Origin: an uncultured Pelagibacteraceae bacterium
GTDB lineage: Bacteria; Pseudomonadota; Alphaproteobacteria; Pelagibacterales; Pelagibacteraceae
DNA: 45,643 nucleotides
Direction of reading: 5' to 3'
NCBI GenBank assembly: GCA_902558705.1
Contig: CACEEW010000002.1
Location: 76,547 to 122,189 of the forward strand
Position 1 is the first letter of the stretch, and each line of letters starts with the position of its first letter. The notes beneath the pieces are model-generated. The model did not search any database and was not told the DNA's origin. It saw nothing but the letters and a program-made list of their open reading frames with translations. A program made the translations under genes and the position numbers. This document shows, piece after piece, positions 4,277-14,227 of this stretch.

Positions 4277-5293
4277 ATGTATACAGTTAATCCAAAAATA
4301 AATAATCAATTATCTCTTTGGTTGATAACCATGTTTTGGATTATAGCAATTATGATCGTTGTTGGTGGTCTTACAAGATTAACTGACTCGGGTCTTTCCA
4401 TAACTGAATGGCAGTTGTTTTCTGGGATCCTACCTCCTTTAAATAATAATGATTGGATCATGTATTTTGATCTCTACAAAAAAATTCCTGAGTACGAATT
4501 ACAAAATTACAATATGACTTTACAAGATTTTAAAATAATTTTTTGGTGGGAGTGGGGTCATAGATTTTTAGGAAGAATAATTGGTATCAGTTTTCTAATC
4601 CCTTTAGTCTATTTTTCCTTTAAAATTGAATTTTATAAATTGTTGAATTTATATTTAATTTTTTTTCTCATATGTTTTCAAGGTTTTATAGGTTGGTATA
4701 TGGTTAGTAGTGGTTTAGTTGATAGAGTTGATGTAAGTCATTTTAGACTATCAATTCATTTATTAATAGCATTTTTGATTTTATCATTAATTTTTTGGAA
4801 TTATTTAAAAACTAAAGTTATCAATAATAACACAAAAAGAATAAGTGTATTTTTACCATTAACATTTTTGATACTTATATTTATACAAATAGTTGTAGGT
4901 GCTTTCGTTTCTGGTATGGATGCTGGTAAAATCTATAATTCTTGGCCTCTCATGGACAATACTTATTTCCCAAATGATAATGACTTTGAAGATCTGTTTA
5001 AATTATCTGCTTTTAGTGATCCTTCTTTAGTCCAATTCATGCATAGAAATTTGGCATATTTGATCATGTTCTTTTATTTTTTTATTTTTTATAAGATATA
5101 TAAAAACAAAATTTATGATTTATATAAATCTATAAACATTTTAGGTATTTTGATAATCCTGCAAATTATTTTAGGTATTTATACAGTGATATATGGTGCA
5201 CAACTTTATATTGCAGCTATGCACCAATTAAGTTCGATTTTTTTAGTAAGTTCATGTATTTATTTTTTTTATATAAATACAAGGTTTAACTAA
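4277..5293 (+). CDS. ctaA: Heme A synthase CtaA
   Basis: 338 residues with eight predicted membrane helices. CtaA oxidises the C8 methyl of heme O to make heme A for cytochrome c oxidase. The four conserved haem/substrate histidines are visible in W-E-W-G-H-R near residue 95, H-F-R-L-S-I-H-L near 155, F-M-H-R-N-L near 258 and A-A-M-H-Q-L-S near 315. Motif G-G-x-T-R-L-T-x-S-G-L-S near residue 30 is the standard N-terminal signature of the alphaproteobacterial/mitochondrial COX15 group. An in-frame ATG 43 bases after the divergent chorismate mutase start is used. The end overlaps convergent metY by 8 bases. Confidence 0.95.
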   Translation: MYTVNPKINNQLSLWLITMFWIIAIMIVVGGLTRLTDSGLSITEWQLFSGILPPLNNNDWIMYFDLYKKIPEYELQNYNMTLQDFKIIFWWEWGHRFLGRIIGISFLIPLVYFSFKIEFYKLLNLYLIFFLICFQGFIGWYMVSSGLVDRVDVSHFRLSIHLLIAFLILSLIFWNYLKTKVINNNTKRISVFLPLTFLILIFIQIVVGAFVSGMDAGKIYNSWPLMDNTYFPNDNDFEDLFKLSAFSDPSLVQFMHRNLAYLIMFFYFFIFYKIYKNKIYDLYKSINILGILIILQIILGIYTVIYGAQLYIAAMHQLSSIFLVSSCIYFFYINTRFN

Positions 5294-6614
5294 CAGCCTT
5301 CAAAGTTCCTTTTGACGATTTATTTAATGCTTGATCTAGATCTTCTATAATATCATCAATGTGTTCTAAACCGATACATAGTCTAACATAACTTTGAGTC
5401 ACACCAGATGCCGCAAGCTCTTTGTCATTTAACTGACTATGGGTTGTGCTAGCTGGATGAATTGCTAAACTTCTAGCATCTCCAATATTTGCAACATGAT
5501 AAAACATTTTTAGAGATTCTATAAATCTTTTGCCAGCTTCAAAACCACCTTTTAGCTCAATACCCACCATAGGCCCATTTCCACCTCTAAGATATTTTTT
5601 GGCTCTATCAGCAATAAGTTTATCGTGTTCAGTAGAAAATATTACTTTAGTTACTTCTTTATGTTTTTTTAAATAATCAACAACTTTTTGCGCATTTTCA
5701 CAATGCTGTTTCATTCTTAAAGCTACAGTTTCAAGTCCTTGAATTATAGAAAACGCATTATCTGGTGAACAAGCTGATCCTAAATCTCTTAATAAACAAA
5801 CTCTAGCCCTCACTGCAAAAGGTATATTTGCCCCAGTAAGTTCTGGTACAACCTTGCCCCAAATAGCCCCACTATAACTGGCATCAGGTTCGTTAAATAA
5901 GGGTTGTCTTTTTGGATCTGCTGTCCAGTCAAAATTACCACTATCAACAATACTCCCAGCTATAGCAGTACCGTGTCCACCAATATATTTTGTTAGAGAG
6001 TGAATTACGACAGCTGCACCATGTTCAATGGGTTTACATAGTATGGGAGCCGCTGTGTTATCCATTATTAAGGGGATATTATATTTTCTTCCTATGTCAG
6101 ATACTTCTTTAATTGGAAATACTCTTAAATATGGATTGGGCAGAGTTTCTCCGTAAAAAGCCCTAGTCTTATCATCAATAGATTTCTCAAAATTTTTAGG
6201 GTCTTTAGGGTCTGCATATCTAATTTCAATACCAAGCTTACTTAAAGTGTGGGTAAATAAAGAGACTGTACCACCATATAGATCAGTTGAACTAACTATA
6301 TTGTCTCCAGCTTGAGCGACATTTAATACTGAAAATAGTGAAGCAGTTTGTCCTGATGCTACCGTCAAACAAGCTAAACCTCCTTCAAGAGCTGCAATTC
6401 TTTTCTCTAATACATCGTTAGTGGGGTTCATTATCCTTGTGTAAATATTGCCAAATTCTTTTAAAGCAAAGAGATTTGCGGCATGATCCACACTATTAAA
6501 TTGATATGATGTAGTTCTATAGATAGGAACGGCTACTGCATTTGTTGTTGGGTCACTTCTATAGTCACCTCCATGAATGGCTATAGTTTCTGGGTTGTTT
6601 CTTTTTTTTGTCAT
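5286..6614 (-). CDS. metY: O-acetylhomoserine sulfhydrylase (PLP enzyme)
   Basis: 442 residues, typical length. It makes homocysteine (or methionine) from O-acetylhomoserine and a sulfur donor in the cytosol. The Cys/Met-metabolism PLP fold is evident: I-H-G-G near the N-terminus, Y-T-R-I-M-N-P-T near residue 60, S-G-Q-T-A near 87, and the PLP lysine in H-S-L-T-K-Y-I-G-G-H-G near 210. The start at 6614 is fixed by a good ribosome binding site, AAGGAG, 7 bases upstream. This site is part of a SAM-V-type riboswitch, itself preceded by a SAM-II-type aptamer, so expression should drop when S-adenosylmethionine is abundant. hom, which supplies homoserine, lies 2.4 kb away on the other strand. Confidence 0.96.
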   Translation of the reverse strand: MTKKRNNPETIAIHGGDYRSDPTTNAVAVPIYRTTSYQFNSVDHAANLFALKEFGNIYTRIMNPTNDVLEKRIAALEGGLACLTVASGQTASLFSVLNVAQAGDNIVSSTDLYGGTVSLFTHTLSKLGIEIRYADPKDPKNFEKSIDDKTRAFYGETLPNPYLRVFPIKEVSDIGRKYNIPLIMDNTAAPILCKPIEHGAAVVIHSLTKYIGGHGTAIAGSIVDSGNFDWTADPKRQPLFNEPDASYSGAIWGKVVPELTGANIPFAVRARVCLLRDLGSACSPDNAFSIIQGLETVALRMKQHCENAQKVVDYLKKHKEVTKVIFSTEHDKLIADRAKKYLRGGNGPMVGIELKGGFEAGKRFIESLKMFYHVANIGDARSLAIHPASTTHSQLNDKELAASGVTQSYVRLCIGLEHIDDIIEDLDQALNKSSKGTLKAVS

Positions 6615-6618
6615 TTTA

Positions 6619-6672
6619 CTCCTTTTTTAGTGCTTTAACTAAATGTAAGGCGCACAATATAGTTCAAATGCC
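6619..6672 (-). promoter_or_regulatory. SAM-V-type riboswitch in the metY leader
   Basis: Read on the reverse strand, a short stem AACUA/UAGUU (6660-6664 with 6637-6641) closes a loop. Loop bases GUGC (6655-6652) can pair with GCAC (6633-6630), and loop bases CCUU (6650-6647) can pair with AAGG (6624-6621), which is the metY Shine-Dalgarno itself. This H-type pseudoknot with the AAAGCACUAAAAAAGGAG tail is the pattern of the SAM-V class known from marine bacteria in front of metY. Ligand binding should hide the ribosome binding site, so control would be translational. Pairings were found by eye. Confidence 0.85.
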
Positions 6673-6691
6673 TACCGACTAATTAATGAAA

Positions 6692-12060: not shown

Positions 12061-12490
12061 TAGGTATAATTTATTTACTAATATTTAAAGTATTACATTA
12101 AGTATTTATGTTAAACTATTGTTTTTATTGTATATTTTATAACTTAAAATATTATAAAATTATGACTTATTTACAATATAAATACAAATAATTGCTGTAA
12201 TAAGTTCTTAATTTTTGGTAAAAAATGAAAAATGTTAAAAATCAAACAAAATTAAGCTTTTTTACACATACCAAATAAAAAATTGATTGAAAAATAGGGT
12301 GCTTTAAAAATGTTGATATAGTTGAATAGTAGAGCGATGCACTAATTGAATATACCATTTAAACGGCCATAGAGGGGTCTATTTTAAGTGTAGCCTCATA
12401 TCTAGTACAACTGAAGGGTGAACTTTACTAATTTACAAGAAATCAATTAAAAAGATCAAAAAATGTTGATTTTACTGACTTTTTTAATGT
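12061..12490. other. Non-coding stretch with no recognised gene
   Basis: About 430 bases between the DMT transporter and the alkyltransferase terminator. It is very AT-rich up to about 12300 and somewhat richer from 12320 to 12420. I find no tRNA, no reading frame with a credible start, and no strong hairpin. A 22-codon open run around 12365-12430 on the forward strand is preceded by a stop and is too short to support a gene. It may be decayed sequence next to a mobile region. Confidence 0.5.
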
Positions 12491-12512
12491 AAAAAAGTCC
12501 TAGAATAGGGCT
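12491..12512 (-). terminator. Rho-independent terminator of the alkyltransferase gene
   Basis: Read on the reverse strand, AGCCCTA and TAGGACT (12512-12506 with 12502-12496) form a 7-bp stem (one G-T) with a 3-base loop, followed by a run of six T. The upstream arm overlaps the stop codon of the alkyltransferase gene. Intrinsic terminators are scarce in this window, which makes this one notable. Confidence 0.65.
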
Positions 12513-12786
12513 AAATCTCTGCTTTTTCAGATCTAAGTAATTTGAGCTTTTGCTTAATTCCGCCTCTCCCAGAGTAACCTCCAAGAGCTCCATCAGATCT
12601 AATCACTCTATGACAGGGTATTTTTGGGGCATATGGGTTTTTAGCACAAGCATTAGCCACAGCACGAGCCGATTTAGGGCTTTTTATGCTAATAGCCACC
12701 TGTTTATAAGTTTTTATTTTACCTTTTGGTATTGTTTTAAGGTATTTCCAGACTTTTAATTGAAATTTAGTACCCTTAAGTATCAT
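12511..12786 (-). CDS. ogt: Methylated-DNA--protein-cysteine methyltransferase, DNA-binding/catalytic domain
   Basis: 91 residues, covering only the C-terminal catalytic domain of O6-alkylguanine-DNA alkyltransferases (full proteins have 160-180). The active-site block P-C-H-R-V-I is at residues 57-62, preceded by the arginine-finger region R-A-V-A-N-A-C-A-K-N-P and followed by L-G-G-Y-S-G-R-G-G. The Cys is intact, so repair by alkyl transfer is plausible; short forms of this kind also occur elsewhere, including catalytically inactive alkyltransferase-like proteins, but those lack the Cys. A GC-rich structured segment ending in a terminator-like hairpin lies directly upstream of the ATG. Confidence 0.9.
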   Translation of the reverse strand: MILKGTKFQLKVWKYLKTIPKGKIKTYKQVAISIKSPKSARAVANACAKNPYAPKIPCHRVIRSDGALGGYSGRGGIKQKLKLLRSEKAEI

Positions 12787-12792
12787 TTATCT

Positions 12793-12837
12793 AAAAAACC
12801 ACTGTTTCCTTGCACTTTTATGGGTGCAAAGAACAGT
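12793..12837 (-). terminator. Terminator-like hairpin just upstream of ogt
   Basis: On the reverse strand ACTGTT/AACAGT (12837-12832 with 12806-12801) and inner TTGCAC/GTGCAA (12829-12824 with 12815-12810) stack across a small internal loop with an 8-base apical loop, then GG and six T (12798-12793). The T-run ends 6 bases before the ogt start codon, so read-through here would decide ogt expression if transcription starts upstream. Confidence 0.65.
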
Positions 12838-12970
12838 TGTTTTGACGCGTCGTTGATCAGCTACCGCCACGTCTCCCGCTCTACATGTTCAGCGATGCTT
12901 TGTAGAGCTTTCTGCCCCTTGGAATTGTACCTCTCGGTTTTTCTCCAATCGGCCAGTTAAGAGTTGCCCC
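12793..12970 (-). ncRNA. Candidate structured RNA or attenuating leader upstream of ogt (unrecognised)
   Basis: A reverse-strand unit of about 178 bases with a promoter-like signal in front (12975-13003), a GGGG start near 12970 and a terminator-like end. GC content is about 51% over 12841-12960 by my count, against the obviously AT-rich surroundings. Visible stems are GCTCTACA/TGTAGAGC (8 bp, 12878-12885 with 12901-12908, 15-base loop) and the final two-part hairpin at 12801-12837 followed by six T. I tried tmRNA, 6S, SRP and RNase P signatures and found no convincing match. It ends 6 bases before the ogt ATG, so it could be a stand-alone small RNA or a leader that attenuates ogt. A decayed foreign gene is the main alternative. 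Confidence 0.5.
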
Positions 12971-12974
12971 TTAA

Positions 12975-13003
12975 TTCATATCTACTTTAACAAAATATGC
13001 GAA
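12975..13003 (-). promoter_or_regulatory. Candidate promoter of the GC-rich RNA / ogt
   Basis: Reverse strand TTCGCA (13003-12998), 17-base spacer, TATGAA (12980-12975). Predicted start falls in the GGGG run at 12970-12967, exactly where the GC-rich segment begins. Confidence 0.45.
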
Positions 13004-13071
13004 AATAGGGTATCACTAAATAGTTGTTTTTTTTAATTTAATTATTTTCTGTGAATTACGGTGATAACTAT

Positions 13072-13321: not shown

Positions 13322-14227
13322 ATGAATAATTTAATAACTGATGTTAAAAGCTTGGAATTAGAAACTTTAAAAAATTTAAAGAATTCAAAAGCTAATAATA
13401 CTTTAAGGGCTTATCAATCTGATTTCAGAGACTTTTCAGCATTCTGTGCAAAAAATGGTTTTTCTTCATTGCCAACACAGCCAAAAATAGTAGCGCTCTA
13501 TATTACTCATCTCTCAAAATCATCAAAATTTAGTACATTAAAAAGGAGAATAGCATCAATAAGCGTCCTTCATAAACTAAAGGGGCATTATCTAGACACT
13601 AAACACCCAATTATAATGGAAAATTTACATGGTATTAAAAGAACTTTAGGGACAAGGCAAAAGGCAAAAAAACCACTATTAATCAATGATTTAAAATTAA
13701 TAGTTAAAGCAATAGATGAAGAAAAAATTAGAGATAAAGCATTAATTTTAATTGGATTTTCAGGCGGGTTTAGAAGATCAGAGTTAGTCAACATCCATAT
13801 TAGTGATATTGAGTTTGTAACTGAAGGTGTAAAAATTCTCATTAAAAGATCTAAAACAGATCAATCAGGTGAAGGAAGTGTTAAGGCAATCCCCTACTTT
13901 GACAATCAGGAATTTTGCCCAGTTGTAGCTCTCAAAAATTATATTAATGAAAAATTTTCAAATACTAATGAGGGTAAAATTTTCAATATTTCAGATAAAT
14001 CGGTGGCTCTTATTATTAAAAGATATGCAGAAAAAGTGGGTTTAGATTCTTCAAAATATGCAGGACATAGTCTAAGATCAGGTTTTGCAACTACTGCTGC
14101 TGAGTTTGGTGCTGAAGAAAGAAATATCATGGCTATGACAGGTCATAAAACTACTCAAATGGTAAGAAGATATATTCAAGAAGCAAATTTATTTAAAAAT
14201 AATGCCTTAAATAAGATAAAGATTTAA
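13322..14227 (+). CDS. Tyrosine recombinase / site-specific integrase
   Basis: 301 residues. The N-terminal SAM-like core-binding domain (residues 15-105) has N-T-L-R-A-Y-Q-S-D-F-x-D-F. The catalytic domain shows the full set: Arg in G-G-F-R-R-S-E-L near 147, Lys in K-R-S-K-T-D near 180, H-S-L-R-S-G near 248, G-H-K-T-T near 274 and the nucleophile Tyr in V-R-R-Y-I-Q near 284. The C-terminal block resembles integrases carried on mobile elements of other alphaproteobacteria more than housekeeping XerC/XerD. No phage or plasmid genes accompany it and I saw no flanking direct repeats. It has its own strong promoter. The tail overlaps the convergent methyltransferase by 4 bases. Confidence 0.92.
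   Translation: MNNLITDVKSLELETLKNLKNSKANNTLRAYQSDFRDFSAFCAKNGFSSLPTQPKIVALYITHLSKSSKFSTLKRRIASISVLHKLKGHYLDTKHPIIMENLHGIKRTLGTRQKAKKPLLINDLKLIVKAIDEEKIRDKALILIGFSGGFRRSELVNIHISDIEFVTEGVKILIKRSKTDQSGEGSVKAIPYFDNQEFCPVVALKNYINEKFSNTNEGKIFNISDKSVALIIKRYAEKVGLDSSKYAGHSLRSGFATTAAEFGAEERNIMAMTGHKTTQMVRRYIQEANLFKNNALNKIKI

What the first reader, a model, noticed from the sequence alone, without database searches (positions are those of the whole stretch)
12787..13003. GC-rich promoter-to-terminator RNA-like unit directly upstream of ogt
Seen: on the reverse strand a promoter-like pair (TTCGCA-17-TATGAA), a GGGG start, an 8-bp stem and a two-part hairpin followed by six T, ending 6 bases before the alkyltransferase ATG. 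GC is about 51% over 12841-12960 by my count in otherwise AT-rich DNA; in AT-rich genomes such islands usually mark structured RNAs. It fits a stand-alone small RNA or an attenuating leader of a DNA-repair gene. I could not match it to tmRNA, 6S, SRP, RNase P or a riboswitch I know. This is the best candidate in the window for an undescribed element.
Basis: partly seen in the sequence, partly recalled or inferred. Interest (0 to 1): 0.75.

Follow-up and report, generated by a model that had tools for sequence, protein, structure and literature searches.

The report
Known IMES-2 RNA of SAR11 bacteria
The GC-rich stretch beside a DNA-repair gene is a small RNA gene of an already catalogued marine family, IMES-2, whose job is unknown; relatives show that it folds compactly, carries its own conserved upstream region, and is cleanly missing from some close relatives that keep the repair gene.

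Summary
It folds with z -5.28, and 39 relatives show strong covariation.

An ogt leader is not supported: same-strand ogt is the next gene at 88 of 174 loci, and relatives keep ogt without the RNA.

Hfq and CsrA models find nothing in 38 genomes.

Best reading: a stand-alone, compactly folded RNA acting in trans, probably through a protein. Transcription and function were not shown here.

The parts
13050..13067 (-). tandem DnaA-box-like pair upstream of the RNA (TTATCACCG TAATTCACA in the window)
   Evidence: A match of 7/9 or better to TTATCCACA in 161 of 161 unique upstream sequences, against 21% for permuted letters and 61 of 161 for the reversed consensus; binding by DnaA not tested
13010..13026 (-). 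conserved element CAAC...GTGATAC
   Evidence: G[TA]GAT at -36 to -33 from the model start in 159 of 161 unique upstreams, GCGAT in the other 2
12984..12992 (-). extended -10 promoter element TGTTAAAGT
   Evidence: TGnTAnnnT conserved behind GTGAT
12793..12977 (-). predicted transcript, about 185 nt
   Evidence: Inferred from the -10 and the T6; fold z -5.28; transcription not observed here
12842..12981 (-). IMES-2 (RF02035) match, whole model
   Evidence: 140 bits, gathering score 54.7, E 2.4e-36
12957..12974 (-). hairpin 1, GCAA (GNRA) tetraloop at 12964-12967
   Evidence: Covarying stem; GNRA loop in 66 of 66 rows
12912..12956 (-). hairpin 2 with internal loops, GAGA (GNRA) tetraloop at 12932-12935
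   Evidence: Covarying stem; GNRA loop in 62 of 66 rows
12878..12908 (-). hairpin 3; loop AUCGCU at 12891-12896
   Evidence: Covarying stem; loop complementary to loop 4
12844..12873 (-). hairpin 4; loop AGCUGAU at 12856-12862, proposed kissing partner of loop 3
   Evidence: Covarying stem; own against swapped loops
12793..12843 (-). terminator-like hairpin with T6 at 12793-12798
   Evidence: Fold; hairpin of -8 kcal/mol or better plus TTTT in 131 of 160 unique loci
12511..12786 (-). ogt-type gene (neighbour, not part of the unit)
   Evidence: Pfam PF01035; next same-strand gene in 88 of 174 loci

Best explanation
It is a stand-alone gene for an IMES-2 RNA of about 185 nt. Shown: its identity, its covarying secondary structure, a conserved upstream region and a terminator-like end, and its independence of ogt. 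Inferred: transcription starts near 12977 from the extended -10 element, is controlled through the GTGATAC element and perhaps through the DnaA-box-like pair, and ends at the T6 at 12793. The RNA folds into two GNRA-capped hairpins plus two hairpins joined by a loop-loop contact. Because its conserved loops are taken up by such motifs, and Hfq and CsrA are not detected in these bacteria, it most likely acts in trans as a compact folded RNA that binds a protein (scaffold or decoy), rather than as an Hfq-type antisense RNA or a leader of ogt. It is dispensable, since relatives live without it.
For: Rfam match over the whole model. 44 pairs including the proposed loop-loop helix: 93.9% of cells paired, 31 pairs with double-sided change, 0 of 500 shuffles as high. 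Loop 3 with loop 4: 26 distinct combinations average -8.91 kcal/mol against -6.71 (sd 0.34) with partners swapped, 0 of 20000; the two variable loop-loop pairs rank 9th and 14th of all column pairs. GNRA loops. Upstream region kept while the neighbour gene changes. Unit absent with flanking genes kept: 285 bp between small gene and ogt in the window, 6 bp in G003 and G072. Hfq 0 of 38 and CsrA 0 of 38 genomes, with 5 and 3 of 14 control genomes positive.
Against: No transcript, partner or phenotype was seen. In a tree-aware null of my own only 6 of 39 stem pairs reach E < 0.05 and the loop-loop pairs do not fall below 0.5, so the kissing loop is probable, not proven; the swap test ignores relatedness. 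29 of 160 unique loci fail my hairpin-plus-TTTT test; the 12 of these that were printed have a hairpin with a poorer T tract. Absence of Hfq and CsrA rests on one Pfam model each.
Confidence: 0.5

Rival explanations
1. Trans-acting antisense small RNA that pairs with mRNAs without Hfq, through the CAGAAAG segment between hairpins 2 and 3 or through the hairpin loops.
For: Small RNA gene with terminator-like end; invariant unpaired GAAA between hairpins 2 and 3.
Against: Hfq not detected in 38 of 38 genomes; loops look engaged in GNRA and loop-loop motifs. Target prediction was not run.
Confidence: 0.25
2. RNA-only dimer or larger assembly through the palindromic loop AGCGCU, in the manner of GOLLD, ROOL and OLE.
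For: Loop 3 is self-complementary in most rows; GOLLD, ROOL and OLE form homo-oligomers with kissing loops (PMC12286853, abstract and passages).
Against: Where the loops are not palindromic (AGCACU with AGUGCU; AGUGCU with AGCACG) loop 3 still fits loop 4, so the constraint is loop 3 with loop 4, which an intramolecular contact explains as well.
Confidence: 0.08
3. Attenuating or sensing leader of ogt.
For: T6 ends 6 bases before ogt; same-strand ogt follows at 88 of 174 loci, median 50 bases after the model end.
Against: 86 of 174 loci have no same-strand ogt next; 18 of 20 genomes without the RNA keep ogt.
Confidence: 0.05
4. Part of a mobile or hypervariable element tied to the neighbouring tyrosine recombinase.
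For: The recombinase lies near 118 of 174 loci; presence is patchy; variant RNAs L056 and L140, 93.8% alike, sit in different clades of the flank tree.
Against: The recombinase is present in 6 of 6 RNA-less regions examined and absent within 2.5 kb in the mnmA-type arrangements printed; no match in phage or plasmid records; viral pattern hits not confirmed by the RNA model.
Confidence: 0.05

Closest known systems
IMES-2 RNA motif (Rfam RF02035)
   Same: Sequence and secondary structure over the whole model, 140 bits; Rfam type Gene.
   Different: The Rfam structure line shows no loop-loop pairs and the model stops before the terminator hairpin; the upstream region, terminator-like end and kissing loop are added here. 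Whether the discovery paper drew them could not be checked.
GOLLD, ROOL and OLE RNAs
   Same: Structured bacterial RNAs of unclear function with covarying kissing loops (PMC12286853, abstract and passages).
   Different: Those are large; IMES-2 is about 185 nt, and multimers are untested. Resemblance only, no membership claimed.
6S RNA (RF00013)
   Same: Similar length (recalled).
   Different: No 6S match at E up to 1 in 30 of 30 Pelagibacterales genomes; IMES-2 is a row of hairpins, not one long bulged hairpin (6S shape recalled).

Membership tests
IMES-2 (RF02035) | Covariance-model score above the curated gathering score | tested here: met
   140 bits against 54.7
IMES-2 (RF02035) | Whole model aligned with its four hairpins | tested here: met
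   Model positions 1-141, posterior near 1 over almost the whole match
IMES-2 (RF02035) | Transcribed as an independent RNA | not testable with these tools
   No RNA-seq available; upstream region and terminator-like end are indirect
Cis-regulatory leader of ogt | Consistent association with the same downstream gene in the same orientation | tested here: not met
   88 of 174 loci
6S RNA | Match to the 6S covariance model | tested here: not met
   Rfam scan of the stretch lists no 6S; 0 of 30 genomes
Hfq-dependent small RNA | Host encodes Hfq | tested here: not met
   PF17209 in 0 of 38 genomes; control genomes positive in 5 of 14
CsrB-like RNA | Host encodes CsrA | tested here: not met
   PF02599 in 0 of 38 genomes; control genomes positive in 3 of 14
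RNA-only oligomer (GOLLD, ROOL, OLE type) | Multimer formation | not testable with these tools
   Needs native gel or cryo-EM

The most novel reading that the evidence does not exclude
IMES-2 is a compact RNA machine held by a kissing loop and GNRA contacts that works without Hfq or CsrA in SAR11 bacteria, is switched by a promoter tied to DnaA (growth or replication state), and is gained and lost as one cassette.
Probability: 0.12. Interest if true: 0.7.

Novelty: new member of a known kind. Interest (0 to 1): 0.4.

Why it matters
IMES-2 is catalogued but I found no function for it. This work places it on assembled SAR11 genomes, outlines the whole gene (upstream element, RNA, terminator-like end), adds a testable loop-loop contact, and supplies natural knock-outs: close relatives with 6 bp where the window has the 285-bp unit. 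That makes the question of what IMES-2 does directly testable by comparing strains and metatranscriptomes.

Tried and rejected
ogt leader: not supported by gene context or by clean absence. 6S replacement: no 6S hit in 30 of 30 genomes, with or without IMES-2, so no exchange pattern. IMES-1 as a substitute: 0 of 32 over cut-off; one weak hit (E 4.5e-4) in G052, which has IMES-2. Diverged copies in IMES-2-less genomes: Rfam model, 11 genomes, best E 0.67; model R1, 40 genomes, best E 0.106. Origin of replication, suggested by the DnaA-like pair: TTATCCACA occurs 6 times in G007, far apart, reversed control 13, and GC skew in 20 sampled stretches was noisy; neither shown nor excluded. Regulon: CAMNNANNWRGTGATA gave 15 places in 7 of 8 genomes (7 for the pattern read backwards); 3 are IMES-2, in the other 12 I saw no similar promoter by eye; the pattern missed IMES-2 in G034 and G090, which have it. 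Peptide: longest reading frame in the RNA, median 14 codons over 66 rows, range 6-35. Viruses: 2 and 37 pattern matches, none confirmed by R1 (one 11.9-bit match, E 0.29, elsewhere in L251). Phages and plasmids: no match. RNA-against-flank identity as a test of transfer: flank rows include partial genes, so one search does not bear that out. A structured RNA between ogt and EamA: no consensus fold on either strand.

Rows dropped: L059, L089 and L129 (matches cut by a contig or locus end) and L061 (no real match) were left out of the 174 loci; L118 (shortened match) is in the 174 but was left out of the 66-row alignment, which keeps sequences under 97.5% alike. The tree used 98 of 173 loci with the RNA and 17 of 18 without, those holding enough of both genes.

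Literature: 'IMES-2' and 'IMES-1' each return one unrelated paper; 'IMES' with Rfam and marine one unrelated. Other searches, listings only. Passages read: PMC2864571, PMC6429828, PMC2704228, PMC2864753, PMC5069720, PMC12286853. The papers sought under doi 10.1038/nature08586 (IMES discovery, doi recalled) and 10.1038/nature08055 (marine small RNAs) are not held.

Full report
CHECK OF THE OBSERVATION. The named sequence features are on the minus strand at the stated places. GC of 12841-12960 is 50.8% in a 27.8% window; 3 of 4553 sliding 120-base windows reach it, all inside this block. The 185-nt strand folds at -64.8 kcal/mol, z -5.28, 0 of 200 shuffles as low. The promoter pair is not picked up by the scan, which finds fewer promoter-like sites in the region (1) than in shuffles (mean 3.5).

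IDENTITY. Rfam at curated cut-offs gives IMES-2, RF02035, at 12842-12981 minus: 140 bits (cut-off 54.7), E 2.4e-36, model 1-141. The held part of the own genome (986 kb, 86% complete) has one copy. In the order, 200 of 397 genomes in 6 of 13 genus groups match, one match each in the rows shown. In a class-wide draw 2 of 190 match, both in the window's family. The pattern favours close sequences, so this scan says little about distant hosts.

STRUCTURE. On 39 distinct rows the Rfam pairs plus the proposed loop-loop helix make 44 pairs: 93.9% of cells are standard pairs (shuffled mean 81.6; slid controls 32.0-40.3), 31 pairs change on both sides (shuffled mean 18.3), 0 of 500 shuffles as high. 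The 5-pair loop-loop helix alone: 95.9% paired (shuffled mean 90.8), 3 pairs with double-sided change (15 of 500 shuffles as high), 10 cells with double-sided change (0 of 500), further pair types 4 (179 of 500). Hairpin 1 ends in a GNRA tetraloop in 66 of 66 rows and hairpin 2 in 62 of 66; hairpin 2 in 128 of 132 unique cores, the 4 exceptions being divergent genus groups. Loops 3 and 4: AGCGCU with AGCGCnU in most, also AGCACU with AGUGCU, AGUGCU with AGCACG, AGUACU with AGUACU, AUCGCU with AGCGCAU, and AUCGCU with AGCUGAU in the window. Over 26 distinct combinations the own duplex averages -8.91 kcal/mol against -6.71 (sd 0.34) swapped, 0 of 20000. The two variable pairs rank 9th and 14th in a weighted covariation scan. 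Against: in a null that redistributes substitutions on a tree, only 6 of 39 stem pairs reach E < 0.05, and the loop-loop pairs do not fall below 0.5. So I call the kissing loop probable. The Rfam structure line has no such pairs.

UPSTREAM REGION. In 161 unique upstream sequences G[TA]GAT stands at -36 to -33 from the model start in 159 and GCGAT in 2. An extended -10, TGnTAnnnT, follows at a nearly fixed distance (its two strongest T positions 96% and 86%). Further up is a DnaA-box-like pair: 7/9 or better to TTATCCACA in 161 of 161, against 21% for permuted letters and 61 of 161 for the reversed consensus. These stay while the upstream gene differs. Many of the sequences are related, so the counts are not independent. 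The operator pattern does not reveal a regulon. A hairpin plus TTTT closes 131 of 160 unique loci.

CONTEXT. Among 174 loci (the same genome can appear twice under different locus ids) the next gene is same-strand ogt in 88, an uncharacterised opposite-strand gene in 38, opposite-strand EamA in 20, and others or none in 28. Of 20 genomes without the RNA 18 have ogt. In G003 and G072 the order recombinase, small membrane gene, ogt, EamA, auxin-type carrier is kept with 6 bp between small gene and ogt, where the window has 285; an alignment of G072, G110 and G003 shows the same gap. On a tree of ogt plus EamA DNA from 115 loci (98 with, 17 without) presence changes at least 8 times, 7 forced by well-supported branches, shuffled mean 16.2. 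This is a local gene tree from a quick search, so gains and losses cannot be told apart.

MECHANISM. Hfq and CsrA models find nothing in 38 genomes, which argues against the two commonest ways for a bacterial small RNA to act. With GNRA caps and a loop-loop contact taking up conserved loops, I favour a folded RNA that binds a protein in trans; this is inference. Antisense action without Hfq is the main rival. Read-through into ogt remains possible where the genes are close; this is inference from spacing only.

NOVELTY. The family is known; I found no function for it in the library (with the discovery paper not held).

Noticed in passing
window 6616-6682, minus: SAM-V riboswitch (RF01826, 76.9 bits, gathering score 41) just upstream of a Cys/Met metabolism PLP-dependent enzyme at 5286-6614; a known arrangement in SAR11 (PMC2704228, passages).
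   Followed up: partly
window 13322-14227, plus: Tyrosine recombinase (PF00589, PF02899) divergent from IMES-2; near 118 of 174 IMES-2 loci and in 6 of 6 IMES-2-less regions examined, next to a glycosyltransferase-rich stretch by my reading of the ORFs: looks like a fixed border of a variable region.
   Followed up: partly
window 12061-12510: Intergenic region between the convergent EamA and ogt genes is 73-85% identical over nearly its whole length in 9 relatives, with and without IMES-2, with a denser block near 12300-12425 but no consensus RNA fold on either strand. Unexplained.
   Followed up: partly
alignment A3 columns 57 and 93 (hairpin 2 internal loop and loop 3): Letters pair in 66 of 66 rows as U-G 43, A-U 12, C-G 11; may be a further tertiary contact or shared descent.
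   Followed up: no
L056, L140, L117: A distinct IMES-2 variant (GCAA cap on hairpin 2; RNAs 93.8-96.2% alike); L056 and L140 fall in different well-supported clades of the flank tree among mostly IMES-2-less loci. Possible horizontal movement.
   Followed up: partly
G007 whole genome: TTATCCACA occurs 6 times against 13 for the reversed pattern, with no cluster; where SAR11 starts replication stayed open here.
   Followed up: no
38 Pelagibacterales genomes searched: Neither Hfq (PF17209) nor CsrA (PF02599) is detected in any of the 38, with or without IMES-2.
   Followed up: partly
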